Of a DNA stretch of 64,000 nucleotides, positions 13,647 to 46,006 are shown piece by piece (position 1 is the first letter of the stretch; each line of letters begins with the position of its first letter). The notes under the pieces were generated by a model. It ran no database searches. It was not told the DNA's origin and saw only the letters and a list, made by a program, of their open reading frames with translations. The DNA is from Alphaproteobacteria bacterium (GTDB lineage Bacteria; Pseudomonadota; Alphaproteobacteria; Rhodobacterales; Rhodobacteraceae), in contig JAUHVK010000020.1 in NCBI GenBank assembly GCA_030425145.1, positions 1 through 64,000 of the forward strand, given 5' to 3'. A program made the position numbers and the translations under genes.

Positions 13647-13790
13647 ATGGCGAATAATGATAAAGAATTTCATCCTCTAGACGCCGCGCGCCTGTCCGTC
13701 GCGCCTATGATGGATGGTGGCGATTGTGACGCGATTCCAACTGGTTGCATGGTATCGTGTGCAGTTCATGTTGACGTTCTGATCGCGTGA
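13647..13790 (+). pseudogene. dusA: Displaced original 5' end of dusA (copy 1)
   Basis: An ATG at 13647 opens MANNDKEFHPLDAARLSVAP followed by MMD, the conserved start of DusA, then runs into unrelated sequence and stops at 13790 after 47 codons. The first 69 bases are dusA-like; the rest is module 1 left end. Unlike the two other remnants, its upstream 200 bases do not match the shared right-end sequence. I infer this is the ancestral chromosomal start of dusA, cut off by the first insertion. The promoter that once drove dusA probably lies in 13425-13646. Confidence 0.8.
13683..13715 (+). repeat. dusA attachment core, copy 1 (left chromosomal junction)
   Basis: 33 bases differing from the intact dusA segment at 45023-45055 at one position (GCGCCT versus GCGCCC). 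Similarity to the real gene stops right after ATGATGGAT, where dusA continues TGGACC and this copy continues GGTGGC. The abrupt end marks the recombination point. Confidence 0.85.
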
Positions 13791-13965
13791 TTTCGAACTG
13801 CGTCGGATGCATTTCGGTGCGCCGGCCGATATTGGTTTCCTCAAGGGCTTATGGTGTCCACTGGGGATGAGGAATTGATAGTGGCTAGTTCGCAGCGGCT
13901 GCATGTCTCGCTGAAAGCAGCAGTTCGAAGTGGGCGCTAGTTAAGTCCGCTTTACCGGACAAATT
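13716..13965 (+). repeat. Module left-end repeat, copy L1
   Basis: About 240 bases that align with 23309-23555, sharing blocks such as CGTCGGATGCATTTCGGTGC (CGTCGGACGCATTTCGGTGC in L2), TGGCTAGTTCGCAG, GCTGCATGTC and TGAAAGCAGCAGTTCGAA. A shorter, more diverged version begins at 39637. The rest of the stretch up to the agmatinase remnant at 14154 shows no gene I can support. Confidence 0.8.
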
Positions 13966-14153
13966 TTGAATTTGCTGTGGCTGCACCAATGTCCTTTCTC
14001 TGATCGATCCATATGAACGTGCAGATGGGCCGTAGCCTTGTCGTCGCTCAACAATGCTACGTGGAAGACCGCAGTTGCCCTGCTGAAGCAATCCAGGAAT
14101 GGGCGCGAAGAGTGGGCGTCAAGCCGATCCGGAGGTATTTGGGATCGCGATGA

Positions 14154-14531
14154 GAGAACGAATATGCCCCCCCCGCCTTGAACATTTGGCACATCGACGC
14201 CCATCCCGACCTGTAGGAAAAGATGCTCGACAACCCGTCAAGCCATGCGTCGCCCTTTGCCCATTTGATGGAAAGCGGCGACGTCGCTCGTTTGGACCAG
14301 ACCGGAATCCGAACATTGCACGGCCACCAGTGCGAGCAAGCCCGGCAGTTCGGGGTCGAAATCCATGAGACGCGCGACCTGAGTGGCGTCGTAGAGAACG
14401 CGTACGACGGGCCTGTCTACCTATCATTCGATCTTGATGCGTTAGACCCGGCCTTTGCCCCGAACGCGGGATCCTCCCTCCCGGAGCAAGGCATTTTTCG
14501 CGGCCCCATACTGATAGCGTCACGCTATTGA
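14154..14531 (+). pseudogene. Agmatinase/arginase (ureohydrolase) remnant
   Basis: In one frame the sequence reads LNIWHIDAHPDL, then a TAG where the family has Tyr, then EKMLDNPSSHASPFAHLME, RTLHGHQCEQARQFGVEIHE and GPVYLSFDLDALDPAFAP before diverging and stopping at 14531. DAHPD and SFDLDALDP hold the manganese ligands of ureohydrolases. The N-terminal half and the C-terminus are gone and there is a nonsense codon, so the gene is dead. Agmatine is a polyamine precursor, and a PotABCD-like importer follows, which hints at the module's former pathway. Confidence 0.82.
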
Positions 14532-14611
14532 ATCAGAGTCATCTAATATTGGATCGCTTTCAATCTGGTGCCTAGGCTGGACTGGATAAGATATCAGTTT
14601 TGGAGACCGAA

Positions 14612-15640
14612 ATGACCACGAAAAAGGCAACACTCTTTGGCGCCGCCCTTGCGGTCGCCTCCATTCCTACTGGCGGTGCATACGCGGCTGACTTGACGAT
14701 CTCTCTTTGGGGCGGTGGCTATGCAGAGGATTTCACCAAGCATCTGATCGAACCTTTCGAAGCGGACAACAATGTCGAGATCGTCGTGGATGGTGGCCGC
14801 TCGTCGGAACGGTTGAGCAAACTGATCGCCACCAAGGGGCGCGGCACCGACGTGGTCTTCCTGTCGGATTTTCAGATGTACGAGGCCTATCAGCGCGGGC
14901 TGATCGCGAATTTGAACCCGGAGAACGCCCCGAACCTCGCCAACCTGCGTGATTTTGCCAAAGATCCGATGGGGGGCGGTTCCTGCCCGGCCTTTGTCGT
15001 GCTTGGCGCGGGCCTTGCCTATAACACCGACGAGTTCGGCGACGGGGCAGAGTTTTCCTGGGCCGATCTGTTGCGCACTGACCTGAAGGGCAAGGCGGGC
15101 TATCCGGACATCGGCATTTCCTACGCCACCATGCTGGCGGTGAAGATGGCCGAACTCAATGGCGGCGGCATCGACAACATCGCGCCGGGGCTCGACGCCG
15201 TCAAATCGGCAAAGGACAGCATCCAATTCTATCAAAATGCGCAGATTCTGGAGAGCGTGGTGCGCGGCGACGTGTCCATGGCGCCTGAACTGAACATCTT
15301 TGTGCGCAAGGAAGACGGTATCCCGATGGATTTCGCATGGCCCGAAGAAGGCGGCATCGGCATCCTCAATCTCATGTGCGTCGTTGAAGGCTCGCCCAAC
15401 GCTGAATTGGCCGAAAAGTTCATCAACTACATGATGTCGGACGAAGTTCAGACAAAGCTTCTGGTCGAACAGGGCGAAACGCCGGTATCGGCCAATGTAG
15501 ATTTCTCGGTCGTAGAACCGTCCTCGAATTCGCTCTCGATCGATGATCTCGAAAAGCTCAATTTCTGGGACATCAAAACCATCGCCGCAAACAAGGCGGA
15601 TTGGGTGCAGCTTTGGCAGGAAACCGTCATCGCGAACTGA
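14612..15640 (+). CDS. ABC transporter substrate-binding protein, PotD-like
   Basis: Periplasmic binding protein of 342 residues, with a GGAG at 14605 ahead of the ATG at 14612. Signal peptide KKATLFGAALAVASIPTGGAYA, cut before ADL. The mature part starts LTISLWGGGYAEDFTKHLIE, with GRGTDVVFLSDFQMYEA and NLMCVVEGSPNAELAEKFIN later, as in the iron/polyamine-type family (SBP_bac_8). First gene of a five-gene set with one ATPase, two permeases and an adenosine-deaminase-family enzyme. The enzyme suggests a nucleobase or nucleoside-like ligand rather than a plain polyamine (inference). Confidence 0.9.
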   Translation: MTTKKATLFGAALAVASIPTGGAYAADLTISLWGGGYAEDFTKHLIEPFEADNNVEIVVDGGRSSERLSKLIATKGRGTDVVFLSDFQMYEAYQRGLIANLNPENAPNLANLRDFAKDPMGGGSCPAFVVLGAGLAYNTDEFGDGAEFSWADLLRTDLKGKAGYPDIGISYATMLAVKMAELNGGGIDNIAPGLDAVKSAKDSIQFYQNAQILESVVRGDVSMAPELNIFVRKEDGIPMDFAWPEEGGIGILNLMCVVEGSPNAELAEKFINYMMSDEVQTKLLVEQGETPVSANVDFSVVEPSSNSLSIDDLEKLNFWDIKTIAANKADWVQLWQETVIAN

Positions 15641-15652
15641 GTCTCTCCCTGA

Positions 15653-15685
15653 GCGGGGCGTTTCAAAAAGATTGAGACGCCCCGC
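15653..15685 (+). other. Hairpin after the binding-protein gene
   Basis: GCGGGGCGTTTC and GAGACGCCCCGC form a 12-bp stem with one G-T pair and a 9-base loop, 12 bases after the stop codon and before the ATPase gene. There is no T-run. Such hairpins commonly stabilise the binding-protein part of an importer mRNA or reduce read-through. Confidence 0.55.
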
Positions 15686-15705
15686 AACACCAATCGGAGT
15701 TGCCC

Positions 15706-16737
15706 ATGTCCTCGGTTGAAGTCAGAAATCTTGTCAAGAAATACGGTGACTTCACCGCTGTGCGGGACGCGAGTTTTCGGGCGGAAACCGGCAGCCTCAT
15801 AAGCATTCTAGGTCCCAGTGGATGCGGTAAGACAACGACATTGCGTGCTATTGCCGGCTTCGAGACCGCGACATCTGGCGATATCCTGCTGGACGACAAG
15901 CCGGTCAACGACATCCCGCCCTGGCGACGCAACATCGGGATCGTCTTTCAATCCTACGCCCTGTTTCCCTTCATGACCGTGGCCGACAATGTCGGTTACG
16001 GACTGAAGATGCGCAAGATGGACAGGGATCAGATCGCCCGCAAGACGGATGACGCCCTGAACCGCGTCGGATTGCCGGACAGCCATCTGAAATATCCCCG
16101 CCAGCTCAGTGGCGGCCAACGGCAGCGCGTGGCCCTGGCCCGTGCGCTTGTCATCGAACCCGCTGTGATGCTTCTTGACGAACCCCTGTCGGCGCTTGAC
16201 GCCAAGCTGCGCGATGAAATGCGGTTCGAGTTGAAACGGATTCAGCGCCAATCCGGTGTGACCACCTTGCTGGTCACTCACGATCAGGAAGAGGCGTTTA
16301 CCCTGTCGGACCAGATCGTCGTGATGAACAACGCGGTCGTCAAACAGGTGGGAAGCCCGCGCGAGATCTGGGACAATCCCAACTGCGCGTTCGTGGCCGA
16401 TTTCATAGGGATCGAGAACATCCTGCCGGCCGAGCGCACAACGAACGGGGTCCGCATCGCGGGGCATGATTTTGCCGCCTTGTCCGATGCAGCGCCGGGA
16501 AGCGATATCATGGCGGCGTTTCGCAGCAGCGACCTGGAACTGGCGGGCGACGAAGCCGGGCAATTCGCGGGACAGGTCGTCGGCGAGGCCTATACGGGCA
16601 ACTACAATGTCTACCAGGTGCAGACCGGCTTGTCGGAGGCGCCCATCATTCTCAAGACCGGGAAAAGCCAACGGCTCAGCGGGACCATCAACCTGAAGCT
16701 TGCGCCAGATCGCATCAAGATCCTGGAGCGGGACTGA
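15706..16737 (+). CDS. ABC transporter ATPase, PotA-like
   Basis: A 343-residue ATPase with Walker A GPSGCGKTTT, signature QLSGGQRQRVALARALV, Walker B VMLLDEPLSALD and H-loop LLVTHDQEEAF. A C-terminal TOBE_2-like domain (about 270-343, VGEAYTGNYNVYQVQTGLSE) is typical of PotA/FbpC. The ATG at 15706 has GGAG 7 bases upstream. It energises uptake through the two permeases immediately downstream (gap of 3 bases). Confidence 0.92.
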   Translation: MSSVEVRNLVKKYGDFTAVRDASFRAETGSLISILGPSGCGKTTTLRAIAGFETATSGDILLDDKPVNDIPPWRRNIGIVFQSYALFPFMTVADNVGYGLKMRKMDRDQIARKTDDALNRVGLPDSHLKYPRQLSGGQRQRVALARALVIEPAVMLLDEPLSALDAKLRDEMRFELKRIQRQSGVTTLLVTHDQEEAFTLSDQIVVMNNAVVKQVGSPREIWDNPNCAFVADFIGIENILPAERTTNGVRIAGHDFAALSDAAPGSDIMAAFRSSDLELAGDEAGQFAGQVVGEAYTGNYNVYQVQTGLSEAPIILKTGKSQRLSGTINLKLAPDRIKILERD

Positions 16738-16740
16738 GCC

Positions 16741-17580
16741 ATGCTGAGCGCCACCCAAAGAAACTGGGCCCTGTCGCTCCCGGCGTTCGTCATCGTCGGG
16801 CTTCTGGCGGTCGTCCCCGCCGTTATGATGCTGGCCTCGGCTTTTACCTCGCCAGATATCGAAGGTTTCACGCTGGCGAACTTCGAAAAGCTCTGGAACA
16901 GCAAACTGGCGTTTCAGGCGTTCTGGCGCACCATCCGCGTGGCGATCATCGTGACCCTGATCACGATCGTCCTGGGGTATCCCCTGGCCATCGGTTTTCT
17001 GCGGGCCGGCCCACGGATGCAGTCCATCTTGCTGCCAATGCTGGTGTTCCCGCTGATGGTTTCGGTCGTCGTGCGCGCCTATGGCTGGATCGTGGTTCTC
17101 AGCCCGTCGGGCATCTTCAACCAAGTCCTACTGGGCCTCGGGATCGTCGCCAGCCCGGTCGATCTGCTTTATTCTGAAACCGCCGTCATCCTTGGCGAAA
17201 GCCAGTTGCTGCTGCCCTACATGGTGCTGTCCCTTATGGCGAGCCTGCAGAAGGCGGAGAGCAACCTGGAAGAAGCTTCGATGAGCCTCGGCGCGAACCC
17301 GGTCACGACCTTTTTCCGTATCGTCATCCCGATCAGCGTGCCTGGGCTTTTGACCGGAACCTTGCTGGTCTTCGCGTTGGCATTGACCGCGTTTGCGACC
17401 CCGCTGCTGCTGGGCGGTGGCCGGGCGCCGCTGCTGACAACGCTGATCTACAGCTTTGCCTTTACCACCTTCGACTGGTCGGCAGCGGCTGCGGTGGGAC
17501 TTGTCCTCGTCATTCTGGCCCTGGCGTTTGTCTGGTTGCAGCGCTGGGTCGGGCAAAAGGTGATGAAATCCTATGAGTAG
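16741..17580 (+). CDS. ABC transporter permease, PotB-like
   Basis: A 279-residue inner-membrane permease with six predicted hydrophobic segments (for example LSLPAFVIVGLLAVVPAVMM and the last VGLVLVILALAFVWL). The EAA loop reads LEEASMSLGANPVTTFFRIV, docking to the ATPase. It overlaps the next permease by 8 bases, indicating translational coupling. Confidence 0.9.
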   Translation: MLSATQRNWALSLPAFVIVGLLAVVPAVMMLASAFTSPDIEGFTLANFEKLWNSKLAFQAFWRTIRVAIIVTLITIVLGYPLAIGFLRAGPRMQSILLPMLVFPLMVSVVVRAYGWIVVLSPSGIFNQVLLGLGIVASPVDLLYSETAVILGESQLLLPYMVLSLMASLQKAESNLEEASMSLGANPVTTFFRIVIPISVPGLLTGTLLVFALALTAFATPLLLGGGRAPLLTTLIYSFAFTTFDWSAAAAVGLVLVILALAFVWLQRWVGQKVMKSYE

Positions 17581-18388
17581 TTCTCGCGCGGAAAATGCCC
17601 TTCTGGTGGCGGGCAAGACCCTCTCCGTTGCGATGATGGTGGCCGGCTTTCTCTTTTTGTTGGGGCCGATCGTCATCGTGGTGATTTCCTCCTTCACCTC
17701 GGCATCCTACCTGACATTCCCGCCACCGGAGTTTTCCCTCCGCTGGTATTACGAGGTCTTCTCGCTGTCGTGGTTTTCGCGCTCCATCGTCACGAGCTTT
17801 GTGATCGCGATCATCGCCACCGCGATTTCAGCTGTGCTCGGCATACTCGTGGCGCGAGCGCTTGCCCGCGGCACATTCCGCGCCAAAGCGATTGTCGAAT
17901 TCGTCGTGCTCACACCGTTGCTGCTGCCGATCGTCGTCCTGGGCTTCGGCCTGTTCAACCTGCTGGTGACCCTGGCGCTGGAAGGCCACAACTTCGTCAA
18001 TCTGATCGGCGGCCACATCATGATCACCGTGCCGTTTGTCGTGCGCTCCGTCTGGTCGGCGATGGCAGGGACGGACATTACGCTTGAGGAGGCAAGCCTC
18101 GGTCTTGGGGCCACGCCCTTCGAGACCTTCCGCAATGTGGTCTTGCCGATGGCCCGCCCTGGGATCATTTCGGGCGGCATCCTCGCTTTCACGATGTCGT
18201 TCAACGACGTCTCGCTGTCGATCTTTCTGACTGGCCCAAGGGCCTCAACGCTGCCGGTCGAGATGATGGCCCATATCGAATATTCGGCTGACCCGACACC
18301 GGCGGCGATCTCGACCATCATGTTGGCGATTACCCTCATCATTTTCGCCGTCACCAGCCGCACGGTCGGTCTCAAGATTTTTGCCTAA
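17573..18388 (+). CDS. ABC transporter permease, PotC-like
   Basis: A 271-residue second permease with six hydrophobic segments (VAMMVAGFLFLLGPIVIVVI near the start). The EAA loop is ITLEEASLGLGATPFETFRN, followed by GGILAFTMSFNDVSLSIFLT, a block characteristic of PotC. It starts inside the end of the upstream permease gene and is followed 15 bases later by the deaminase gene. Confidence 0.9.
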   Translation: MSSSRAENALLVAGKTLSVAMMVAGFLFLLGPIVIVVISSFTSASYLTFPPPEFSLRWYYEVFSLSWFSRSIVTSFVIAIIATAISAVLGILVARALARGTFRAKAIVEFVVLTPLLLPIVVLGFGLFNLLVTLALEGHNFVNLIGGHIMITVPFVVRSVWSAMAGTDITLEEASLGLGATPFETFRNVVLPMARPGIISGGILAFTMSFNDVSLSIFLTGPRASTLPVEMMAHIEYSADPTPAAISTIMLAITLIIFAVTSRTVGLKIFA

Positions 18389-18403
18389 AGGGAGGAGCGC
18401 GCA

Positions 18404-19486
18404 ATGAAACAGAGCCATACACATGGACCAATCCCGGATGGGTTCTTCGCCGATATCCCCAAAGTGGATATCCACTGCCACCTTTACGGCACCATTCGCG
18501 AGGCAACCTTGCAGGACTTCGTCCGCGAAACCTCTGCGCCACTGACCGAGGAAGACGTGGCGGGCTACTATGTCCGTGGAGAAAAGCCGCGCGGTGTCTT
18601 GCACGCGTTCAGGTTCATGGAAAAGCACATCTTTGGCACGGAAGACCGCCTCTACCGCGTGACGCGCGAATGCCTTGAAGACCTGAGCGCCGAGAACGTG
18701 CGCTATGCGGAATTGTTCTGGAACACCACCGGAACACTGTTGCATGCTCCGAACCTGTCATTCGACGCGGCGCAGGGTGCAGTCATTCAGGCGATGGACG
18801 ACGCAGAGCGTGACTTCGGCATTGTGTCCCGGATCATCCATTCGATCGACCGTGAAGCGAGCCCCGAAGACGCGGTCGTGATGATGGAACGCGCGTTGGC
18901 CACGCCGCATCCCAAGGTGATCGGCCTCGGCATCGATTATATGGAAAATGAACGTTTCCCACCGGAAGGCTTCTGGAAAGCCTATCGGATGGCGCAGGAA
19001 GCAGGCTGGAAGTTGACGGCCCATGCGGGAGAGAACGGCAGCCATTGGCGCAATATCGAAACCTGTCTCGACCTTCTGAAGGTCGACCGGATCGACCATG
19101 GCTATACGGTTCTGGACAATCCGGACCTGCTGCAACGCTGCATCGACGAGGGAATCGTCTTTACGGTTGTGCCGACGAACACCCATTACCTGAACGTGCT
19201 GTCACCCGATGAATGGGCCGAAAAACACCCGATCCGCGCGATGGGCCGGACCGGCTTGAAAATCCATCCCAACACCGATGACCCCACCTTCCACAATACC
19301 TCGCCGAACACGGTCTGGAAAACGATGCATGCGGCCTTTGATTATGGTCTCGATGACCTGCGCACCTTCATGCTGAATGGACTGGACGGTGCCTGGATCG
19401 ATGACGCGACCCGCCGCGACATGACCCAAGCGTTCTGCGAGTCCTTCGATGAGGCTGTACGGAACCATCGTCTTCATCCCGTGTGA
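18404..19486 (+). CDS. Adenosine deaminase-family amidohydrolase
   Basis: A 360-residue metal-dependent deaminase. Zinc-binding and catalytic motifs are in place: DIHCHLYGT (His24, His26), LTAHAGEN with the catalytic Glu, RIDHGYTVLDN, and HPNTDDP for the last Asp ligand. It is directly downstream of the PotABCD-like importer on the same strand with GGAGG before its start, so it most likely acts on the imported compound, perhaps an adenine-type purine. The first motif is HCH rather than the usual HLH, and NTDDP replaces STDDP, so it is off the main adenosine deaminase branch; substrate uncertain. Confidence 0.85.
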   Translation: MKQSHTHGPIPDGFFADIPKVDIHCHLYGTIREATLQDFVRETSAPLTEEDVAGYYVRGEKPRGVLHAFRFMEKHIFGTEDRLYRVTRECLEDLSAENVRYAELFWNTTGTLLHAPNLSFDAAQGAVIQAMDDAERDFGIVSRIIHSIDREASPEDAVVMMERALATPHPKVIGLGIDYMENERFPPEGFWKAYRMAQEAGWKLTAHAGENGSHWRNIETCLDLLKVDRIDHGYTVLDNPDLLQRCIDEGIVFTVVPTNTHYLNVLSPDEWAEKHPIRAMGRTGLKIHPNTDDPTFHNTSPNTVWKTMHAAFDYGLDDLRTFMLNGLDGAWIDDATRRDMTQAFCESFDEAVRNHRLHPV

Positions 19487-19617
19487 ACGGACTGCAAAAT
19501 CTTGTCGTCGATCTTCTGAGGGTGACCTGACCTAACTCGGGGGCTTGGATTGCGGGTCATAACAACGTCAATGCATCGGCATTGCAAATCGATCCCGAGA
19601 TCAATCAAGATGCCGAA

Positions 19618-20583
19618 ATGGAGCATCTCATCGACAAACTTGCCGTCAAGGACCATGATCCGCGCATCAGTCGTCGACACCTTTCCTATTTCTATGCTGC
19701 CGCGAAGGTGGAGAATTTCACGAAGGCCGCAAAGCTGTGCGGTGTCGCCCAGCCGTCGCTGAGCCGTGGCATATCCTTGCTGGAAGAAGCGATGGACGCA
19801 AAGCTCTTTGACCGGGTTGGGCGTTCGGTGAAACTGACGTCAAAAGGCAGAGAAATCTTTCCGATTGTCGAGCTGTTGCTGAACCAGTTTGACGACATTT
19901 CAAGAGGCCTCACCAACGGCCTGCATAACCCGTTTACGGAGTTGAAGATTTCGGCAGTAACAAGCCTGACATCCAATTTCCTGCCGAGGTTGTTGAACCG
20001 GTTCGAGCATGAAAACCCAGGAATACAAGTTACGATCTATGACGGGCTCGACACGGACGTTTATAATGAGGTCGAGGTCGGCGACACGGATATTGGGGTC
20101 GTTACCGAAATCAAAAGGCCAGAAACTTTTCGGATCAATGAATTGCTCCAGGATCAATTGGCTCTCATTGTTGCAGAAGAGCACGCGTTTGCCGACCGGG
20201 CGTCGATTGAATTGAGAGAACTCGAACACGTGCGAATGACCTCATTCGCAAAAGCAACGGAGACGCATGCCGAGATTGCATCGGCTTTTCATAGCGTTGG
20301 TCTGGATTACCACCCGGCTGCCACTACCCGATATCGAAGTACCTTAATGGGGCTGGTCCTGCACCGCGGCCTGGCGACCTTGCTTCCCAGAATTGTCGCA
20401 GAAGAACACCAAGACTCCCGCCTGCGAATTATACCATTGGTCAATCCGGTAATGCGCCGGACTTATTATACGGTGATGCGAAAGAGTGGAAACTTTAAAC
20501 CAGGTGTATTGCAACTTGAGGCATTCTTGCGTCGATCGGCCATGAATGCTGTGATCAAAATGGATGATCCTGGTCCTGAATAG
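19618..20583 (+). CDS. LysR-family transcriptional regulator
   Basis: A 321-residue LTTR. The helix-turn-helix is RRHLSYFYAAAKVENFTKAA with AQPSLSRGISLLEEAMDAKL, followed by an effector domain (LKISAVTSLTSNFLPRLLNR). A TTG at 19582 could extend it by 12 residues, but the ATG at 19618 is as plausible; no strong ribosome site marks either. It lies after the importer-deaminase genes and probably regulates them. Codon use appears less GC-rich than in the importer genes. Confidence 0.88.
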   Translation: MEHLIDKLAVKDHDPRISRRHLSYFYAAAKVENFTKAAKLCGVAQPSLSRGISLLEEAMDAKLFDRVGRSVKLTSKGREIFPIVELLLNQFDDISRGLTNGLHNPFTELKISAVTSLTSNFLPRLLNRFEHENPGIQVTIYDGLDTDVYNEVEVGDTDIGVVTEIKRPETFRINELLQDQLALIVAEEHAFADRASIELRELEHVRMTSFAKATETHAEIASAFHSVGLDYHPAATTRYRSTLMGLVLHRGLATLLPRIVAEEHQDSRLRIIPLVNPVMRRTYYTVMRKSGNFKPGVLQLEAFLRRSAMNAVIKMDDPGPE

Positions 20584-20883
20584 GCGTTGCGGGAGCAAGC
20601 GCGAAATTTCACAAAAGTGGTCAATTCGTCATCTGTCCAGATCTCAGTTCTGCATGAGGTTTCGGTGAAACAGACTTGATCTGCCACGGCACTATCAATC
20701 TTTTCGCGCCAAAGCCCTTCGAATTGATGCGCCGTTTGACACAGGGGAGAACAATCGACAGCCGAAAGGAACTGTCAGATGGCGCGGGTTTCGGTTGAAG
20801 CGGCTACGCTGCACAAAACAGGTGATGGCCAGGTTGCCTATTCCCCGAACAGGCTTTCACTACAGTTTTTCCGATCCGTTCTT
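20584..20883. other. Spacer without a gene between two convergent genes
   Basis: 300 bases between the LysR gene and the 3' end of the deaminase pseudogene on the other strand. Only short unsupported frames; no clear terminator hairpin found. Confidence 0.5.
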
Positions 20884-21904: not shown

Positions 21905-22100
21905 TGGCGATCACCCATCTTTCTACACCATTTGATGAATTTTCACCATTTGGTTCAGATATGAAATAGTCAACGAGAACCTATCGTGCATACTGGAACA
22001 CAGGAGCCGACAGCGAGATCAACCCGAGGCAGTTTACCCGTTTCCGATCCGGCGCCCGCGAACAGGTCCGGGGGTGGCTCGGTGAAAAGGAACAAGTTCG

Positions 22101-22787: not shown

Positions 22788-23009
22788 CAGCCAACAACGG
22801 ACGCTGGTTGAACTCGAATTTTGGGTTGGCATGGCGCTTTAGTCGCCGGGTTCGCCGAACTAACGGCTACAAGGGCTCGTTTGCCTCGAACCGATCTGAG
22901 CTCTCGAAGGACGTTTCGTTCAAGGCAGCATTTGATTCCAAACTTAGATCTTGCGCAACCGATCCAATGACTGACGTTTATGCAGGCTGCAGCATCCAGT
23001 TCGCCGGGC

Positions 23010-35548: not shown

Positions 35549-35550
35549 CC

Positions 35551-36443: not shown

Positions 36444-36474
36444 CATACGAACGATCCAACAAGGAGGACACCCA

Positions 36475-37323: not shown

Positions 37324-37326
37324 GCC

Positions 37327-38865: not shown

Positions 38866-39334
38866 ACCGCTCTCAGGTTTCCTGCCTTTCGGTAGATCTC
38901 TCCCACTTTGGTCCGGGAGAGCGAATGCGTGCCTTACACGCCCGACTCCAGTCTGACAGCCTCCACGCAGTTTGCTGTCGATGGCGCCGATGAACCGCGC
39001 CAGATCACGCAGATTGCCTGCGAGTTCGAGACGCGCGCGAGGCGCCAAAAGGTCTTTTGGCAGGAGTGGGCGCTGCTGGCTGATGATACGCTCCATGTTG
39101 AAGCTGAACTCTCATGATATGCCCTCCGATCCAACCTCCGCACCCAGGTATCAGCACCGCGCCGACAGCGCTTTTCCACAAGCGCTTGATTGATCGCTCA
39201 TACCTGATGACGTCTCACGACGTCGGGTGCGAAGGACTGCTTCACTGCGCTGCGTTGCCACGCACATTGTGATGCGCGCGCGCCAGAAATTCTCCTGCAT
39301 GCGCTCGCAGCGAGGAATCGCAGTGGCTGAGACA
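38866..39334. other. Gene-free region before the module 2 right end
   Basis: About 470 bases. A reverse-strand frame reading LLPKDLLAPRARLELAGNLR to IGAIDSKL looks faintly coding and could be a fragment of a lost gene, but I cannot name it. Otherwise only short unsupported frames. Confidence 0.45.
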
Positions 39335-39603
39335 GGCTCTTCCCCATCATTCTCTGCGCGAATCAAGAACGTCCGCTCCCTGGACCGTCGGCGACGAGGA
39401 ACATCCAGGTTTGGAACATGACCGGAACGGTTTTCAGACGTGGAATGGGAACCTGACCCGCCCAATAGCCGCCGAATGCCTGTATTTGTACGAGGCAGGG
39501 TGGCGGCACGTCCCTCGTGTGCGTATGATGCGCTCAGCGGGTCCGTCCCGAATGCCGTCGGACCCACGGAGACCACTGAACGCCCCTGAACGCAGCCACC
39601 GAG
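39335..39603 (+). repeat. Module right-end repeat with dusA-like promoter region, copy R2
   Basis: Aligns with 23010-23275, sharing GCGAATCAAGAACGTCCGCT, ACCGTCGGCGA, TTTTCAGACGTGGAAT, GCCGCCGAAT, TTTGTACGAGGCAGGGTGGC and GGCACGTC. Confidence 0.8.
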
Positions 39604-39639
39604 GCGGCGCGACTGTCCGTTGCGCCCATTGATGGGTGA
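39574..39639 (+). pseudogene. dusA: dusA 5' remnant (copy 3, module 2/3 junction), start codon lost
   Basis: Corresponds to the first 19 codons of dusA: LNAATEAARLSVAP is still readable. The ATG position has become ACG and an extra T in CCCATTGATGG breaks the frame at the Met-Met, so this copy is the most decayed. Confidence 0.7.
39604..39636 (+). repeat. dusA attachment core, copy 3
   Basis: Matches the dusA core with a few substitutions and a one-base insertion just before GATGG. It joins modules 2 and 3. Confidence 0.75.
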
Positions 39640-39860
39640 CGGTGATTTCAGCTGTATTTCAATGATTTGAGCGATAGCGTGTGCAGCATATGTTCATGTT
39701 TCGATCGTGTGAATTCGTACTTCGTCGTGTGTAGTTCGGTTTGTGGAGCCGATTCGAACTGGATTGTATTCGTTATTGCCGCATTGAGGCTTTGAGTTGA
39801 TGACGACGTGCCCTCCGACCCTTTGAGCTGTGCAGAAGCAGCCGTTCAATGCAGCCACCG
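39637..39860 (+). repeat. Module left-end repeat, copy L3 (diverged)
   Basis: The first 120 bases align with L2 (for example GTGTGCAGCATATGTTCATG against GTGCGCAGCACATGTTCATG, then TTTCGATCG); later parts keep only patches such as GCAGAAGCAGCCGTTC. From 39861 to 40259 no gene is supported. Confidence 0.65.
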
Positions 39861-40259
39861 TGACTTGCAGTTTGGCGGAACTTCCCGACTTTTGGCCCTG
39901 TTGCGTCAACCGTGAGAACGGCCCGAAGCTGACCTTGGACAAGGTCTAACTCCGCTGCGGTGCGGCCCGTCAGACCGGACTTTCGCTGCAAGTGCAAAGT
40001 CGAACCTGCAGCGAACTCACACTCTGCGAGAGTTCTTCAACACAATCCGGGACAAAGTACCACTTCGCTTCGGCTGCGCGGATTTCGGATGGGAGAGAAC
40101 GCTTGCCGGCAAAAAACAAGCGTTGTTGGAGTGTGCACAAGCGTCGAGGACCTGGCGCAAATGGCGAACCAGCACATGGGGCAAATGCACTCCCTGGAAT
40201 TGGTGATTGGATTTCTATTGGCACTGTAGGTCGAAGGGCAGACAAGGCCCTGGACCGGA

Positions 40260-41591
40260 TCAACTGCGGCGCGGTGCGTTTGGTACAAGCCGCACCCAAT
40301 CTCTTCCCAGAAACGGCCCGATGATCGCCCTAGCCACCCATATCAGACCAATGCCCGAACGAAACTCGAACTCTTCAAAATGAAACTGGCGCGCGCTCAC
40401 GCCGAATGGGCGAAGCTCTTTTTTAAGACTGGTCCGCATGGGTTTCGGGCCACAAAACGATACCCGGGCCGCCGAAAGGTCGTCACCCACAGCATCCTTG
40501 ATCACGTTGGCCGTGAGGCGCTGTCCTTCGCTTGAGACAACCAGATGAAGGTTGAGGTTTGGCACCTTATCCGCCAGTTCAACGACCTCTCCAATGTGCG
40601 GGGCTTGGCCGCGTGATCTGACGCAATAAAAAAGGTCAACTGCAGGTGCATCAGCTGGCAGCGCTTGGGCCCAGCTCAGGAAGGGCGTAATGCCGATGCC
40701 CCCGGCAATCCAGACTTGGCGCTTGCGGGGTGCCATCTTGAAACGGCCGAATGGGCCCTGAACACGGACCGTTTGGCCAAGCTTGAGCAAATGTTCGATA
40801 TCATCGGTAAAGTCGCCCAACGGCTTGATCGTCACACGAAGCTGGCCATTGTCCTCAATGCGCGAGAACGTAAAGGGGTGGGGTTCAGCGTTTTGCGACC
40901 CTGTGAACTGGACGATCCCGAACTGCCCGGGGGTCGGCCTGAGGGGGCGGCCGAGCGGCTCCAGTGTCACAGATGTTGCGCCGCCTGTCTGGTCAATGTC
41001 GGAAATCCGATAATCGTGTTTTGGCTTCAGGCGATCAGGCAGCAACGTCCACACATAGGCCAACAGCCCCGCCAGGCTGAACGCGCCAGTGTACACGCCT
41101 GCGGGGTCTGTCATCGCGAATGGCCTAGCGATCCAAATGAAGTGCAAGGCCCCGAGCGCAAAGAAGACCCCCATGGCTTTGTGGGTCCATTTCCACAAAT
41201 GGTATGGAATAAATGTGGCGACGGACAGAGCGGACAGAAGGAGCAAACCATAAAGGCTGACCTCGCCCAGACCTTCGGCCAACCCGCTCAAAAGGCCGCC
41301 ACCGCTGCCCGGTAGGTCTGCATCGATCGAGCTGTGCAAAAGCATGGCAAGCACCGCGCTGATGCCGGCCCACTTGTGCAGCGCGTAGATCTGGTCAAGG
41401 CCGCCAAACACTGTCTCCATGCCCTTGATCTTGGCCGACAGGATCTGCGTCCAGGCCATCGCAATCAGTGCAGCCATGCCAAGATACTGCGAGAACAGCG
41501 CGGTCGCGTTGCCCCCGTCCGACAAGCCCGCAAGCTGCGCCGCCGGAAAGGCCGCCGTGGCGGTGACAAGAATGAGGCCGATGATGTTCAT
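40260..41591 (-). CDS. Ferric reductase-like flavocytochrome (heme membrane domain plus FAD/NAD(P) domain)
   Basis: A 443-residue membrane oxidoreductase. The N-terminal half has about six hydrophobic segments with paired helix histidines (ALHKWAGISAVLAMLLHSS; WKWTHKAMGVFFALGALHFI), the ferric-reductase-like heme domain. The C-terminal half has the FAD motif EPHPFTFSR and NAD motif WIAGGIGITPFLSW and ends with the Cys-Gly-Pro motif VSFCGPKPM. Start set at 41591 (NIIGLILVTATAAFPAAQ) because the 50 residues before it are not family-like. Clustered with a PepSY protein and a two-component system; electrons may go to metal or oxygen. Confidence 0.87.
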   Translation of the reverse strand: MNIIGLILVTATAAFPAAQLAGLSDGGNATALFSQYLGMAALIAMAWTQILSAKIKGMETVFGGLDQIYALHKWAGISAVLAMLLHSSIDADLPGSGGGLLSGLAEGLGEVSLYGLLLLSALSVATFIPYHLWKWTHKAMGVFFALGALHFIWIARPFAMTDPAGVYTGAFSLAGLLAYVWTLLPDRLKPKHDYRISDIDQTGGATSVTLEPLGRPLRPTPGQFGIVQFTGSQNAEPHPFTFSRIEDNGQLRVTIKPLGDFTDDIEHLLKLGQTVRVQGPFGRFKMAPRKRQVWIAGGIGITPFLSWAQALPADAPAVDLFYCVRSRGQAPHIGEVVELADKVPNLNLHLVVSSEGQRLTANVIKDAVGDDLSAARVSFCGPKPMRTSLKKELRPFGVSARQFHFEEFEFRSGIGLIWVARAIIGPFLGRDWVRLVPNAPRRS

Positions 41592-41782
41592 GCTGTCTAT
41601 CTCGAATCTGTTGATCGTGAACCGCCCGCTCGATTGACGCGTGGTCGGCAAAGTGTGATTTCGGGGCTGTCGGAAGGGCGCGGCGTGTTGGGAGAGTCGA
41701 GGGCAGAAAAGGGGCACATGGCAGCTTTGCCAGTACCCCATGATCTGACCTCCTGGCGTCCAAGCGCGCGTTTCTGGTGCCG

Positions 41783-41989
41783 TCAGTTTTCGGTCGGTTG
41801 GTCGCTGGCGGATTGCTTCTGCGCGATTGCCACAAACGGGGCTGCGACAAGGCCGAGGCCCATCACCACAAAGCCCAGCAAGGCCAGGTAGAACAGGGCA
41901 GTGAGGCCAAGCCCGGCCAGCACACAGGCCACCAGGATGGCAAGGGTGGCAGTTGCGGCGGAGGTGGCTTTGGAAATCAGGGTCTTCAT
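41783..41989 (-). CDS. Small membrane protein
   Basis: A 68-residue protein, KTLISKATSAATATLAILVA then LAGLGLTALFYLALLGFVVM and a short polar tail (QKQSASDQPTEN), with two closely spaced hydrophobic helices. GGAG lies 8 bases before the ATG. It sits between the ferric-reductase-like and kinase genes on the same strand. I do not recognise the family. Confidence 0.65.
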   Translation of the reverse strand: MKTLISKATSAATATLAILVACVLAGLGLTALFYLALLGFVVMGLGLVAAPFVAIAQKQSASDQPTEN

Positions 41990-42067
41990 TGGGGCGGTCT
42001 CCATGTTAATCGTTGTTTCGATGGAGACAACATGGGGGCTGGTGTTTACGCCCGTCTGACCGCTTCT

Positions 42068-43351
42068 TTACAACTCCGTAAAGTTGATGGTGACGCGCAA
42101 ACCATGAGGGTTTTCTTGGGCAAGCTGCAGCCGCGCGTTGTGCCGGTCGGCAACCGCACGCACCAGCGCAAGGCCCAGTCCACTTCCGTCGCTGTGACGC
42201 GCCGCATCGAGGCGCACCATGGGCTTTATGATCTCTTCAAAATGTGACGGATCGACACCTTCGCCATCATCTGACACGCCAATGGATGTGCCATTCGCAA
42301 ACAGCGTGATCTGCGATCCACCATGAACAATTGCGTTCTGAATCAGGTTTGCCATGGCCTGGATCAGCATTTTCCGGTCGGCTTGCAAGGTGGCGGGATT
42401 GGCGACCTCCAAGATGATGGTTTTTGCATTGTCTTCGACAACAGGCCCAAAAATCTCGGCCACTTCGCGTGCCAATTCACCGAGTTTCAAAGCCTCGAAA
42501 CCTTCGTGCCCTTGGCCCGCTTCGATCCGGGCGACACGCATGATGGTATCGAAAATGCCGGACAGGCGGGACGCTTCTTCAAGCGCCGCGCTGCGTTCTT
42601 CGCCATTGGGCAAGGCTTCCAGACGGGCCTGAAGGCGCGCCAGAGGGGTCCGCAAATCGTGGGCCAAGCTGGCGCTTAGATTTCGGGTCTGGACCACCAG
42701 CCGTTCAAGTTCCGATGCGGTCGCGTCAAGCTGAAGAGCAACATCGCCAAGATCATCGGACGATCGAGAAACGCCCGTGCGGGCCTGCAAGTCGCCGGCG
42801 GCCAGATCATCAAGAGTGACCTTGATCCGCTGGAACCGCCTTTGAGCCAAAAGACCGGCCCCCAACCCGATCAAAAGCACGAAGACAAGGACAACCCCGG
42901 CGGTGCTCCAGAGCACACCGCCCAACAGGTCCAGCGCGTCCTCGCTGTCATCCAGTGGCACAGCGATGAGAATTGGCGTGTTTTCACTGTCGCGCGCGAC
43001 CAAGACGCGCCAGTCCTCCGAGCGGCGGAAATCGTCATCCAGAGTGACTGTTCCGCCGCCGCCACGTGCGGCCCGCGCAAAGGCCTGCGGCAGGTTGCCC
43101 AACGCGTCAAGCGGGCGGATTATCAATGAAAATTCGTCGCCGGATGCTTCGTCAACCTCGACCGTGGCAGCAAGGCTCAAAAGCTGGTCATCGACCCTGC
43201 GCAAAAGGGCATCGCGGCCAAAGGCGAGCGCGGCAAAGATGGCCAGAACCATCCCAAGCGCGAATGTCACGGAAAGAAGAAGCGTCAGCCGCAAGGTCGA
43301 GGAGCGAACGAGCCACCGCAATCGATGTGCAACCCTACTGGCCAAAAACAT
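42068..43351 (-). CDS. Sensor histidine kinase
   Basis: A 427-residue membrane kinase: first helix STLRLTLLLSVTFALGMVLA, periplasmic sensor of about 110 residues, second helix (WSTAGVVLVFVLLIGLGAGL), HAMP, H-box SASLAHDLRTPLARLQ, N-box NLIQNAIVHGG, G1 VSDDGEGVD, G2 GSGLGLALVRAVADRH. Start at 43351 overlaps the regulator gene by 17 bases. Partner of the OmpR-type regulator; probably controls the PepSY and ferric-reductase-like genes. Confidence 0.9.
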   Translation of the reverse strand: MFLASRVAHRLRWLVRSSTLRLTLLLSVTFALGMVLAIFAALAFGRDALLRRVDDQLLSLAATVEVDEASGDEFSLIIRPLDALGNLPQAFARAARGGGGTVTLDDDFRRSEDWRVLVARDSENTPILIAVPLDDSEDALDLLGGVLWSTAGVVLVFVLLIGLGAGLLAQRRFQRIKVTLDDLAAGDLQARTGVSRSSDDLGDVALQLDATASELERLVVQTRNLSASLAHDLRTPLARLQARLEALPNGEERSAALEEASRLSGIFDTIMRVARIEAGQGHEGFEALKLGELAREVAEIFGPVVEDNAKTIILEVANPATLQADRKMLIQAMANLIQNAIVHGGSQITLFANGTSIGVSDDGEGVDPSHFEEIIKPMVRLDAARHSDGSGLGLALVRAVADRHNARLQLAQENPHGLRVTINFTEL

Positions 43352-44018
43352 ACCCTTCCCCCCGTCGGGTCCGCAGAAGTTCCTCGGCGAAAGGTTTGTC
43401 AATCTTGGCCCGAAGGCGGCTGATATGGGTCTCGACGACGCTGGTTGTCGGGTCGAAACTCATATCCCAGACCTGTTCCAGCAACATCGTGCGCGTCACC
43501 AGACGTCCCGGCCTACGCATGAAATATTCCAGCAGCTTGAACTCCTTGGCCATGAGTTCGATCGCCTTGCCCTGTCGCTCGCAGCTGCGTGCCAGAAGAT
43601 CGAGGCTTAAATCTCCATACCGCAGAACGGTTGTTTCGCCGCGGTTTTCCTCACCGCCCGTTCGTCGCCGTCCAAGCGCATTGACCCGTGCTGAAAGCTC
43701 TATGAATGCGAAGGGCTTGGTCAGATAATCATCGCCGCCGATCTCGAACCCTTCGACACGATCATCCACCTCCCCAAGGGCGGTCAGAAAAATTGCAGGT
43801 GTGGTGTTTTTTGAGGCGCGCAAGGATTTCAGAACGGAAAGGCCATCAAGGCTGGGCACCATGCGATCGAGGATCAACAGGTCATAGTCTTGGCCCATTG
43901 CGGCAAGCAGTGCATCCTTGCCATCCGGAAAATGGTCAATGACGTGACCTTCCTCGCGCAGGCCCTTGGCGATCCAAGGGCCGAGATCTTTGTCGTCTTC
44001 AAGCAAAAGAATGCGCAT
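43335..44018 (-). CDS. OmpR-family response regulator
   Basis: A 227-residue regulator. Receiver: RILLLEDDKDLG acidic pocket, phospho-acceptor Asp in LLILDRMVPSLDG, Lys in DDYLTKPFAF. C-terminal winged helix: LMAKEFKLLEYFMRRPGRLV and ETHISRLRAKIDKP, ending RGEGYVFGQ. An ATG 9 bases upstream (44027) is equally possible. Cotranscribed with the kinase. The PepSY gene lies upstream on the same strand. Confidence 0.9.
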   Translation of the reverse strand: MRILLLEDDKDLGPWIAKGLREEGHVIDHFPDGKDALLAAMGQDYDLLILDRMVPSLDGLSVLKSLRASKNTTPAIFLTALGEVDDRVEGFEIGGDDYLTKPFAFIELSARVNALGRRRTGGEENRGETTVLRYGDLSLDLLARSCERQGKAIELMAKEFKLLEYFMRRPGRLVTRTMLLEQVWDMSFDPTTSVVETHISRLRAKIDKPFAEELLRTRRGEGYVFGQ

Positions 44019-44089
44019 CGACACCATGTCCGAAAAACCAAAACGGGAGGTGCAATCATAGCTACACCTCCCATCGCGTTTAAAGCGTA

Positions 44090-44419
44090 TTAGCCGTTAT
44101 CGGAATAGTGGTCATCATCATCGTCACTGTCATCCTCAGCTTCGATGTCAAGTACTTCGCCGGTGTCTGCGCTGATCTCGACTTCCATCTCGACGCCATC
44201 AGCGGTCAGGATGTCGATTTCATAGACCAGCATGCCGTCTTCACGCTCAAGCTCTGTTTCCTGCACCTCGCCGGGAACTTGCGCCAAGGCGATTTCCACG
44301 GCCTGCTCAACCTTGAACGCCGGGGCCGGCGCATTGGCTTGGGCCACGGCAACGCTGGCCAGACCGGTTGTTGCCAGAAAGCTTGCAAGGATACCGCTCG
44401 TGATGAGTTTCTTGTTCAT
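44090..44419 (-). CDS. PepSY-domain periplasmic protein
   Basis: A 109-residue exported protein. GGAGA precedes the ATG at 44419; signal peptide NKKLITSGILASFLATTGLA..., cut near VAVAQA. The PepSY domain runs KVEQAVEIALAQVPGEVQET to GEVLDIEAE, followed by an acidic tail DDSDDDDDHYSDNG. PepSY genes commonly accompany such two-component systems and ferric-reductase-like proteins. The acidic tail could bind metal ions. Confidence 0.87.
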   Translation of the reverse strand: MNKKLITSGILASFLATTGLASVAVAQANAPAPAFKVEQAVEIALAQVPGEVQETELEREDGMLVYEIDILTADGVEMEVEISADTGEVLDIEAEDDSDDDDDHYSDNG

Positions 44420-44789
44420 GTCATATCTCCATTTGGTTGGGGAAGAACACTGCGTCCTTCGATGACACCAAGATGGAGGTCGAACTTTGCAGCTGTCTGC
44501 GGTGAACCTTACAAATGTGTAAGGCACTTTTCGTGATGGGAGTTTGGGGTGAAGTAAAACCCAAAAGCGCCTTTGTCGTTCTCGCTGGCCATAGTCTTTT
44601 GACCCGCACACGCCAGACCACATTGACAGGTATGACAAATGTGCAGACTGACCAAAGAGCGCCTTGCCGGTCAGCTGCAAAGTCAATGATGACCCTCAAA
44701 AAGACCAATAAAGCTGCCTTTCATGCACGATGAAGCAACGGTCATTGCGAGTGCGTCACGGACATTCGCCGCATGGAGCACCTACGACT

Positions 44790-45022
44790 GCTCCACCCGG
44801 ACCTCGTCGGCGACGATGGCGATAGAGGTTCGGAAAACGGCCAGAGTGAGGTTCAGAAGCGAGATTGAAGTCGGACCCGCCCAACTACCGCCGAATGCCT
44901 GTCTTTGTACGGGGTAGGGTGGTGCGTCATGTATCGTGTGAGTATGGTGTGTATCACGGTTCCATCCCAATTGCTGGCGGAACCAAGGAGATCGTTGAAT
45001 GCCTTCAAACGCAGCCACCCAG
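44790..45022 (+). repeat. Module right-end repeat serving as the present dusA promoter region, copy R3
   Basis: Aligns with R1 and R2 through GACCCGCCCAACTACCGCCG, AATGCCTGTCTTTGTACGG and GTGAGTATGGTGTG, then CCAAGGAGATCGTTGA with the GGAG ribosome site of dusA. The gene-free stretch 44420-44789 upstream holds only the promoter of the minus-strand PepSY gene. Confidence 0.75.
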
Positions 45023-46006
45023 GCCGCGCGCCTGTCCGTCGCGCCCATGATGGATTGGACCGACCGTCACTGCCGGTTTTTTCACCGGCAGATCAGTCGG
45101 CATGCGCTGCTCTATACGGAAATGGTCACATCGCCGGCCTTGGTGCGGGGGGGGGCGGTGCATTTGTTGGACCACAACCCGGAAGAGCACCCTGTTGCCC
45201 TGCAACTCGGAGGGTCTGATCCGGCTGAATTGGCCGAGGCGGCGCGGATCGGGGCCGAGGTGGGGTACGACGAGATCAATCTCAATGTCGGCTGTCCGTC
45301 GGACCGCGTGCAATCGGGGACCTTCGGCGCGGTCTTGATGAAAACGCCCGGACTGGTGGCCGAGTGTGTCGCCGCGATGAAAGCCGTGGTAGATGTGCCG
45401 GTGACGGTGAAATGCCGGATCGGTGTGGACGATCAGGACCCCGAAACAGTTTTGCCCGACGTCATCGCGCGGGTTCGCGATGCGGGGTGCGACTACCTAA
45501 TCGTTCACGCCCGCAAGGCGTGGTTGCAGGGGTTGTCGCCCAAGGAAAACCGGGACATCCCGCCGCTCGACTATGAACTTGTGCTGCGTATGGCCGAGGC
45601 GTTCCCGGACCTGCCGATGTCGATCAATGGCGGGATCGAAACCCTTGATGCGGCGCAGGAATTGATCGATCGCGGCCTGAACGGCGCGATGATCGGACGG
45701 GCGGCGTATCACCGCCCATGGGACATCCTTGCCAATGTCGACAGCGCCCTTTTCGAGGCCTCAGCCGCAGTGCCGTCTCGCGAAGCGGTGATCGACGCCA
45801 TGCGCCCCTATATCGACGCGCATCTGGAGGCGGGGGGCAAGTTGCATCAGATCACCCGCCACATGCTGGGGCTTTTTGCAGGTCAACCGGGAGCGCGGAC
45901 ATGGCGGCGGATCCTGTCTGAGCGGGCAAACCGGCCCGGCGAGGGGTGCGCATTGTTGGACGAGGCTCTGGACCGTATGCAGCAGCCCGAAACCCTCGCG
46001 GGCTGA
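44999..46006 (+). CDS. dusA: tRNA-dihydrouridine(20/20a) synthase DusA
   Basis: A 335-residue FMN enzyme reducing uridine 20/20a in the tRNA D-loop. It has LSVAPMMDWTDRHCRFFHRQ, LHTEMVTS-type LLYTEMVTSPAL, GYDEINLNVGCPSDRVQSG with the catalytic Cys, VKCRIGVDDQD, DYLIVHARKAWLQGLSPKEN and MSINGGIETL, all DusA hallmarks. Its first 19 codons and promoter belong to the right end of module 3, which has replaced the original start now at 13647. The gene remains intact, and the next gene starts 3 bases downstream. Confidence 0.97.
   Translation: MPSNAATQAARLSVAPMMDWTDRHCRFFHRQISRHALLYTEMVTSPALVRGGAVHLLDHNPEEHPVALQLGGSDPAELAEAARIGAEVGYDEINLNVGCPSDRVQSGTFGAVLMKTPGLVAECVAAMKAVVDVPVTVKCRIGVDDQDPETVLPDVIARVRDAGCDYLIVHARKAWLQGLSPKENRDIPPLDYELVLRMAEAFPDLPMSINGGIETLDAAQELIDRGLNGAMIGRAAYHRPWDILANVDSALFEASAAVPSREAVIDAMRPYIDAHLEAGGKLHQITRHMLGLFAGQPGARTWRRILSERANRPGEGCALLDEALDRMQQPETLAG
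45023..45055 (+). repeat. dusA attachment core, copy 4 (within intact dusA)
   Basis: Codons 9-19 of dusA (AARLSVAPMMD). The left part is shared with all three upstream copies; only this copy continues into the rest of dusA (TGGACC...). Confidence 0.85.

What the first reader, a model, noticed from the sequence alone, without database searches (positions are those of the whole stretch)
13647..45055. Three integrase-less modules stacked in tandem at the 5' end of dusA
Seen: a 33-bp dusA core occurs four times (13683, 23276, 39604, 45023); similarity to real dusA stops at the same base after ATGATGGAT in the first three. Sequences just right of copies 1-3 are related (13716, 23309, 39637), and sequences just left of copies 2-4 are related (to 23275, 39603, 45022). 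So the order is chromosome, module 1, module 2, module 3, dusA. Known: dusA is a target of a tyrosine-integrase family carried by islands and prophages. Inferred: these are cis-mobilisable or decayed elements that accumulate by site-specific recombination using an integrase encoded elsewhere, delivering catabolic operons. Such an accretion array of metabolic cargo without recombinase is unusual.
Basis: partly seen in the sequence, partly recalled or inferred. Interest (0 to 1): 0.87.

Follow-up and report, generated by a model that had tools for sequence, protein, structure and literature searches.

The report
Integrase-less gene modules stacked at dusA
Three blocks of genes without any insertion enzyme of their own sit in a row at one chromosomal landing site (the start of dusA) in an alphaproteobacterium, and blocks with the same ends occur in related genera, so they look like passive passengers moved by the insertion enzyme of larger conjugative elements.

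Summary
Confirmed. Four dusA cores (13683, 23276, 39604, 45023) delimit three modules of 9.6, 16.3 and 5.4 kb; the right flanks of cores 1-3 are homologous, as are the left flanks of cores 2-4. Each module runs from a right arm (R) to a left arm (Lf) and has no detectable tyrosine integrase. Corrections: core 3 is degenerate, and left of core 1 lies a relic of another dusA element with a broken integrase start. Arms occur in 37 of 394 family genomes, this one included; 15 complete modules were found in 10 genomes. One 2.5-kb module is shared end to end (84% DNA) by two genera whose DusA is 66% identical. An R arm also ends a 72.7-kb dusA conjugative element, and module arms share the repeat motif of its L069-type integrase. 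Reading: non-autonomous, CIME-like modules moved by that integrase, which was not found in this genome. Movement itself is inferred, not shown. New variant of a known kind.

The parts
13468..13668 (-). Relic of an older integrase-type dusA element: arm plus about the first 24 codons of an L078-type dusA integrase, without its start codon and with stops further on
   Evidence: 69.6% over 204 bp to L078:9776-9977 (E 1e-24); minus-strand frame GSIIKPKRKDVSVMWLA*MAVRR against L078 GTIIKRKRKDGTSSWLAQIAVRR; a related arm is joined directly to dusA in same-genus genome G402
13647..13715 (+). Orphaned earlier dusA 5' end (MANNDKEFHPLDAARLSVAPMMD), ending in core 1
   Evidence: translation; core 32/33 to dusA
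13683..13715 (+). Core 1 (att-type repeat)
13716..13975 (+). R arm of module 1
   Evidence: 185 of 226 identical to the R arm of module 2; R profile E 7e-22
13716..23275 (+). Module 1 (9.6 kb): ABC transporter (solute-binding protein, ATPase, two permeases), adenosine-deaminase family enzyme, LysR and TetR regulators; no integrase found
23007..23275 (+). Lf arm of module 1, with start codon and 5' codons of a dusA-like frame (MHLNAANKAARLSTAPMMD, running into core 2)
   Evidence: Lf profile E 4e-47
23276..23308 (+). Core 2
   Evidence: 25/33 to dusA
23309..39603 (+). Module 2 (16.3 kb): branched-chain-type ABC transporter, iron alcohol dehydrogenase, AraC regulator, flotillin, two polyketide-cyclase-family proteins, metallo-beta-lactamase fold protein, aldehyde dehydrogenase; no integrase found
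   Evidence: R arm 23309-23560, Lf arm 39335-39603
39604..39636 (+). Core 3, degenerate (24/33; one inserted base)
39637..45022 (+). Module 3 (5.4 kb): ferric-reductase-like oxidoreductase, histidine kinase, response regulator, PepSY protein on the minus strand; no integrase found
   Evidence: R arm from 39637 and Lf arm 44754-45022
45023..45055 (+). Core 4, inside dusA
44999..46006 (+). dusA, whose first 19 codons and upstream region are of the module (Lf) type
   Evidence: PF01207 E 2e-82; Lf arm reaches into it

Best explanation
The three modules are non-autonomous integrative elements. Each consists of a right arm (R), cargo, and a left arm (Lf) that carries a replacement upstream region, start codon and first ~19 codons for dusA. 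They lack an integrase but keep what look like the arm sites of the L069-type dusA integrase of conjugative elements (ICEs). When such an ICE is in the cell, its integrase recombines the 33-bp core, so a module circle is inserted in front of dusA (or in any core of an existing array) and becomes a tandem member. Each arrival gives dusA a new start and leaves the previous start as a fossil at the outer boundary. SHOWN: the anatomy, its recurrence across genera, no detectable integrase in the modules, end-to-end sharing of one module between two genera with limits at the cores, R arms at the far ends of integrase-bearing elements, and the shared arm motif. INFERRED: that the L069-type integrase catalyses the reaction, that modules move as circles in trans rather than only in cis when joined to an ICE, and that the new Lf drives dusA.
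For: Arms match in 37 of 394 family genomes, own included; in a 337-genome class search the only match outside the family was 34 bp at E 0.001. 15 complete modules (1.6-23.6 kb; one ends at a truncated Lf) in 10 genomes; a search of their frames of 40 aa or more with HMMs made from the own-genome and dusA integrases finds none, while two control integrases, close to the training set, ring. A 2.5-kb module of G371 (second from dusA) and of Nioella nitratireducens (the only one in the 10 kb read there) align at 84.5% over 2535 bp and stop at the cores, whereas their DusA is 66.2% aa / 74.6% nt identical; G154 shares both its ends (90% over 709 bp, 89% over 518 bp) with a different middle. ICE: in G177 dusA, an L069-type integrase (96%), a relaxase, TrbE and, 72.7 kb on, an R arm 80% identical to that of module 2; in G066 and G302 an R arm likewise follows a decayed integrase of this type, with no other arm between in the stretches scanned. 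Arm motif: tandem TGTGC-N3-7-TGTGC beside the integrase start in 20 of 24 L069-type elements and 0 of 7 other dusA integrases; in 18 of 51 Lf arms (0.18 expected), always 83-85 bases from the core; YGTGTGC in 25 of 38 R arms (2.7 expected). Module-ICE tandems: G173 and G407. Module-free state: joined window flanks align without a gap across the junction to G402 dusA, over 71 bp to its left and 293 bp to its right.
Against: No excision or circle has been observed. No intact dusA-type integrase was found in this genome nor in 6 of the other 9 genomes with complete modules, so present-day mobility is doubtful. In the stretches read, no Lf end lay beside an integrase, so Lf is not explained by simple deletion from the ICEs seen. 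The motif pattern was chosen after looking at the arms, the sequences compared are related to each other, and shuffles do not allow for that; 33 of 51 Lf arms and 13 of 38 R arms lack it. Lf conservation may partly reflect dusA promoter function. End-to-end sharing was seen in one pair only; a search with that module in 394 genomes found no third full copy, but found pieces of it without arms, for example 1.15 kb at 87% in G145. Module sharing could also arise by homologous recombination between arms. The cargo of module 2 also exists in G186 (14.8 kb, 78%) without arms in the 40 kb read, so operon spread does not need the module.
Confidence: 0.78

Rival explanations
1. Ordinary CIMEs by local decay: three different ICEs or islands integrated one after another at dusA and each lost its integrase and transfer genes in place; nothing travels without its own integrase.
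For: Decayed integrases lie at other array boundaries (window 13468-13668; L175 and L159; L156). R arms of modules resemble ICE ends. CIMEs in tandem with ICEs or IMEs, with metabolic cargo, are known in streptococci (PMC7563491, passages).
Against: The Lf end is shared by modules of many genera but was not found beside an integrase in the stretches read, and it differs from the integrase-side end of the dusA ICEs seen except for the motif. One whole integrase-less module occurs in two genera in the same form, so at least that one spread after losing, or without ever having, an integrase.
Confidence: 0.35
2. Homologous recombination between R/Lf arms of resident arrays, not site-specific recombination, exchanges cargo between genomes.
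For: Modules share ends but swap middles (G154 against G371; G371 modules A and D share 3.4 kb next to R).
Against: Founding insertion still needs site-specific recombination: junctions stop at the core, the joined flanks match a dusA without modules, and the shared module sits alone (in the stretch read) in one genome and inside an array in the other.
Confidence: 0.25
3. Segmental duplication of the dusA 5' region followed by unrelated insertions, no mobile element.
For: All boundaries carry a dusA 5' end.
Against: Right flanks of cores 1-3 are homologous to each other and to far ends of integrase-bearing elements in other genera but not to dusA.
Confidence: 0.02

Closest known systems
CIMEs (cis-mobilizable elements) accreted in tandem with ICEs/IMEs, mainly streptococci (PMC5704250, PMC7563491; passages read)
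   Same: att-flanked elements without integrase or transfer genes, stacked at one gene end, often with metabolic cargo; found next to ICEs.
   Different: Here arrays of three or more such elements with no intact ICE found beside them (window, G371), at a protein gene 5' end; conserved 100-300 bp arms; an Lf end not seen on any ICE read here; one module with the same plan in two genera.
dusA-associated islands and integrases (Farrugia 2015, PMC4482086; abstract, results parts 1-2 of 3 and passages read)
   Same: Insertion in the dusA 5' end, direct-repeat core, element supplies a new dusA 5' end, integrase gene beside dusA in the ICEs found here.
   Different: Those islands were collected by their integrase, the only gene common to all; no integrase was found in the modules here.
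dusA-specific SGI1-like IMEs of Vibrio (PMC8409611; abstract and passages read)
   Same: dusA target, new promoter supplied by the element, mobilised by a conjugative helper, one tandem case reported.
   Different: They encode their own integrase and RdfN; no integrase was found in the modules, and the RdfN family PF11112 was found in 1 of 14 genomes searched, outside its module (8 of the 10 module genomes were among the 14).
Integron gene cassettes (comparison recalled from general knowledge)
   Same: Works like: mobile units without recombinase accumulating in an array at one site.
   Different: Operon-sized, two different arms, a dusA-type tyrosine integrase as the candidate enzyme; attC and IntI were not searched for.

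Membership tests
CIME | Flanked by attL and attR of one integrase specificity | tested here: met
   Cores and R/Lf arms at all three modules; that one integrase recognises them is inferred
CIME | No integrase, relaxase or transfer genes | tested here: met
   Window modules: Pfam shows none. All 15 modules: no tyrosine integrase, no relative of the G177 relaxase or TrbE. Other relaxase families and serine recombinases were not separately sought in the 12 modules outside the window
CIME | Derived from an ICE or IME by deletion | tested here: inconclusive
   R arm matches the far end of integrase-bearing elements; Lf end matches no ICE end read here except for the motif
CIME | Transfers by accretion with an ICE | not testable with these tools
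   Tandems with ICE genes exist in G173 and G407; transfer itself cannot be tested
dusA-associated island (DAI-GEI) | Insertion at the conserved dusA 5' site with repeat core and new 5' end | tested here: met
dusA-associated island (DAI-GEI) | Encodes a dusA-associated integrase | tested here: not met
   only a broken relic outside core 1
IME | Own integrase and relaxase or oriT | tested here: not met
   No integrase; no relaxase in the Pfam results of the window modules; oriT not tested
Integron cassette array | attC sites and IntI | not tested
   No search for attC or IntI was run

The most novel reading that the evidence does not exclude
R/Lf modules are a self-standing lineage of integrase-less mobile units in Rhodobacteraceae, not debris of ICEs. 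They evolved their own Lf end, which carries the integrase arm sites together with a fresh dusA start, travel singly between genera as circles using the integrase of a passing dusA ICE in trans, and pile up into a chromosomal array, an operon-scale analogue of a cassette array.
Probability: 0.35. Interest if true: 0.85.

Novelty: new variant of a known kind. Interest (0 to 1): 0.67.

Why it matters
Island surveys often start from an integrase gene, so elements without one are missed; here conserved arms let them be found directly. If they move in trans, part of the operon exchange in a large bacterial family could be carried by passengers that look like ordinary chromosome. The arms in 37 of 394 family genomes and an ICE with an intact integrase frame in a same-genus genome, G407, make this directly testable.

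Tried and rejected
Rejected: (a) an integrase elsewhere in the genome as present helper: 19 tyrosine-recombinase domain matches, none of dusA type (17 of the 19 were compared as proteins). (b) Phage origin of the arms: no match among 50,697 phage records. (c) A module-borne RdfN/PrtN factor: PF11112 only in G278 of 14 genomes searched, and there outside the module. (d) Simple duplication of dusA: contradicted by the R arms. (e) Shared window cargo at dusA in relatives: in the fetched same-genus stretches only distant paralogue matches to window cargo were seen. Module 2 cargo matches in 194 of 394 genomes and is collinear over 14.8 kb in G186, where no arm lies in the 40 kb read. (f) Plasmid searches with module 1 and 3 cargo: the listed rows are transporter and regulator matches covering at most 12% of the query (10 of 1,519 and 10 of 87 records listed). 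(g) The Pfam scan of 84 module ORFs (A1; two ORFs split between fetched pieces, those under 130 aa and the window's were left out) shows only its 25 commonest of 119 families, so it is not used to exclude rare genes. (h) The co-occurrence of arms and L069-type integrase (9 genomes in both; 37 and 32 of 394; P 0.001) is partly trivial because ICEs carry R arms themselves; the integrase set was my own cut at about 60% identity, fragments included, from the table.

Not resolved: G407 holds ICE genes on two contigs (C1 and C5), and a truncated Lf lies between the C1 ICE genes and the R arm beyond them, so the order of its array is open. In G173 the R arm of the ICE is weak (E 0.002) and the integrase frame has a stop. 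Four of 17 same-genus genomes gave no match and were not examined.
Full report
WHAT IS THERE. The window (contig C36 of genome G000, 4.9 Mb in 111 contigs) belongs to a Rhodobacteraceae-type alphaproteobacterium; the closest DusA with a name is 79% identical, from a Marivita sp. MAG. Four copies of a 33-bp dusA 5' core lie at 13683, 23276, 39604 and 45023, with 32, 25, 24 and 33 of 33 bases equal to dusA; no other 33-mer in the window reaches 23. The right flanks of cores 1-3 are homologous to each other, as are the left flanks of cores 2-4 (z 14 to 114), while the right flank of dusA and the left flank of core 1 belong to neither set. In this genome the arms were found only here. Core 3 is decayed (extra base, lost start codon).

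THE MODULES. Module 1 (13716-23275) has an ABC transporter, an adenosine-deaminase family enzyme and two regulators. Module 2 (23309-39603) has a branched-chain-type ABC transporter, dehydrogenases, flotillin and accessory enzymes. Module 3 (39637-45022) has a two-component system, a ferric-reductase-like protein and a PepSY protein. G+C is 0.56, 0.64 and 0.57 against 0.60-0.61 outside. Each boundary keeps a short dusA-like start: MANNDKEFHPLDAARLSVAPMMD at core 1, MHLNAANKAARLSTAPMMD at core 2, a frame without ATG at core 3, and the start of the open dusA, MPSNAATQAARLSVAPMMD, at core 4. Thus each module brought its own dusA start, as reported for other dusA islands (PMC4482086, results parts 1-2; PMC8409611, abstract and passages).

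A FOURTH, OLDER ELEMENT. Window 13468-13668, left of core 1, matches (69.6%, E 1e-24) the arm and about the first 24 codons of a dusA integrase in Roseovarius sp. L078; the frame lacks its start codon and runs into stops. In same-genus genome G402 a related arm is joined directly to dusA, and the window's joined outer flanks align to G402 without a gap across the junction, over 71 bp to its left and 293 bp to its right. This is the module-free state.

RELATIVES. The core-2 junction (both arms) matches 37 of 394 family genomes, own included, at E <= 0.001. In a 337-genome class search, which again held some family members, the only match outside the family was 34 bp at E 0.001. No phage record matched; two plasmid records did, with the R arm only. 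Of the 80 dusA loci, eight carry most of the Lf profile at dusA (L090, L101, L104, L107, L112, L114, L124, L132), and others carry a dusA-type integrase there; some of the 80 hold little sequence upstream. In the own genus (17 genomes) ten, the window's included, have Lf at dusA; G407 has an integrase-bearing ICE there, G402 an L078-type arm, G403 neither; four gave no match and were not examined. G371 has four modules in a row over 42 kb, the last with a truncated Lf, and no window cargo beyond a 40% ABC-ATPase paralogue.

COMPLETE MODULES. Scanning 60 stretches with R and Lf profiles gave 15 modules bounded by R and Lf in 10 genomes, window included, of 1,561 to 23,579 bp (one ends at a truncated Lf). 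No tyrosine integrase was found among their frames of 40 aa or more, with both positive controls found (the controls are close to the HMM training set). Cargo of the others varies: transporters, dehydrogenases, efflux, chaperonin, mechanosensitive channel, AlkB-like protein, antitoxin-like protein (a plasmid relative of the last region is annotated RelE/ParE toxin with DUF1778 protein).

A MODULE SHARED BETWEEN GENERA. Module B of G371 (2,513 bp) and the only module in the 10 kb read of Nioella nitratireducens (L101, 2,506 bp) align at 84.4% over 2,514 bp from core to core; including 21 bp of core it is 84.5% over 2,535 bp, and similarity ends at the core on both sides. Their DusA proteins are 66.2% identical (74.6% in DNA). 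G154 shares 709 bp at the R end (90%) and 518 bp at the Lf end (89%) with G371 but has a different middle. No dusA-type integrase was found in G371, Nioella (G409) or G154. Among 394 family genomes no further full copy was found, but pieces of this module occur without arms, for example 1.15 kb at 87% in G145.

THE LIKELY HELPER. In G177 a 72.7-kb element lies between dusA and an R arm: an L069-type integrase (96%) beside dusA, a relaxase (RlxS-like, below that model's cut-off), TrbE (above cut-off), restriction genes and cargo. G066 and G302 show an R arm beyond a decayed integrase of this type. G173 has ICE genes behind dusA and the Lf of a module directly beyond them, but its integrase frame has a stop and its R arm is weak. 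Same-genus G407 has an intact integrase frame (94%) with TrbE and relaxase, and on another contig a module Lf abutting an R arm that leads into a second set of ICE genes. Of the 19 genomes, G407 alone had an L069-type integrase. Different dusA integrases carry different repeats next to their start codon. The L069 type has tandem GTGTGC repeats (20 of 24 with the strict pattern), the others do not (0 of 7); the pattern recurs in 18 of 51 Lf arms at a constant 83-85 bases from the core, and its unit in 25 of 38 R arms. The pattern was chosen after seeing the arms, and related sequences are not independent. I read it as the integrase arm-binding code; binding was not tested. The Lf copy overlaps the region upstream of dusA, so promoter constraint may add to the conservation.

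MECHANISM AND LIMITS. Best reading: an L069-type integrase supplied by a dusA ICE recombines the core, inserting modules in front of dusA or in an array; composite module-ICE units may also excise and conjugate, as known for CIME-ICE tandems (PMC5704250, passages). Not shown: excision, circles, transfer, integrase binding. In seven of the ten genomes with complete modules no intact dusA-type integrase was found (G000, G371, G154, G394, G396, G256, G409); G385 has one, G278 has one of another type and G389 only a broken fragment. Without a helper the modules would be at rest.

NOVELTY. CIMEs with metabolic cargo are known, mostly from streptococci (PMC7563491, passages); dusA islands are known but were defined by their integrase (PMC4482086). 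Seven searches of the paper library showed, among the titles listed, no report of integrase-less dusA arrays in Rhodobacteraceae; only open-licence papers are held, and most of those searches listed a part of their hits. I file this as a new variant: CIME-like by structure, with an end (Lf) not explained by deletion from the ICEs read here and with evidence, from one pair of genomes, that such a module spread as a unit.

Noticed in passing
window 36475-37323 and L335:13577-14422: The metallo-beta-lactamase fold protein of module 2 is 99.6% identical in amino acids to that of G186 although third codon positions are 80% identical and the other module 2 proteins are 53-93% identical: unusually strong constraint.
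   Followed up: partly
L335:1115-15921 (G186 C7): The module 2 cargo (14.8 kb, 78%) occurs there without R or Lf arms in the 40 kb read, beside what reads like a transposase fragment (read by eye).
   Followed up: partly
L295:15001-15188 and L296:10001-10080: R arms with only the end of the core lie on two plasmids (Phaeobacter sp. G2; Marinovum algicola pMaD6), in both cases within 0.6 kb after relaxase and VirD4-type genes; possible secondary-site insertions.
   Followed up: partly
window about 14180-14520: Remnant that reads like the middle of an agmatinase/ureohydrolase (read by eye from the sequence, not searched), just inside module 1.
   Followed up: no
L141 and L142 (G371 modules A and D): Two modules of one array share 3.4 kb at the same offset from R (mechanosensitive channel and permease-like genes, 76.7%) and differ elsewhere.
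   Followed up: partly
L322 (G278 C1:2962576-2962800): A PrtN-domain protein (RdfN-like) lies between an L078-type integrase beside dusA and a 1.6-kb module, the only one among 14 genomes searched.
   Followed up: no
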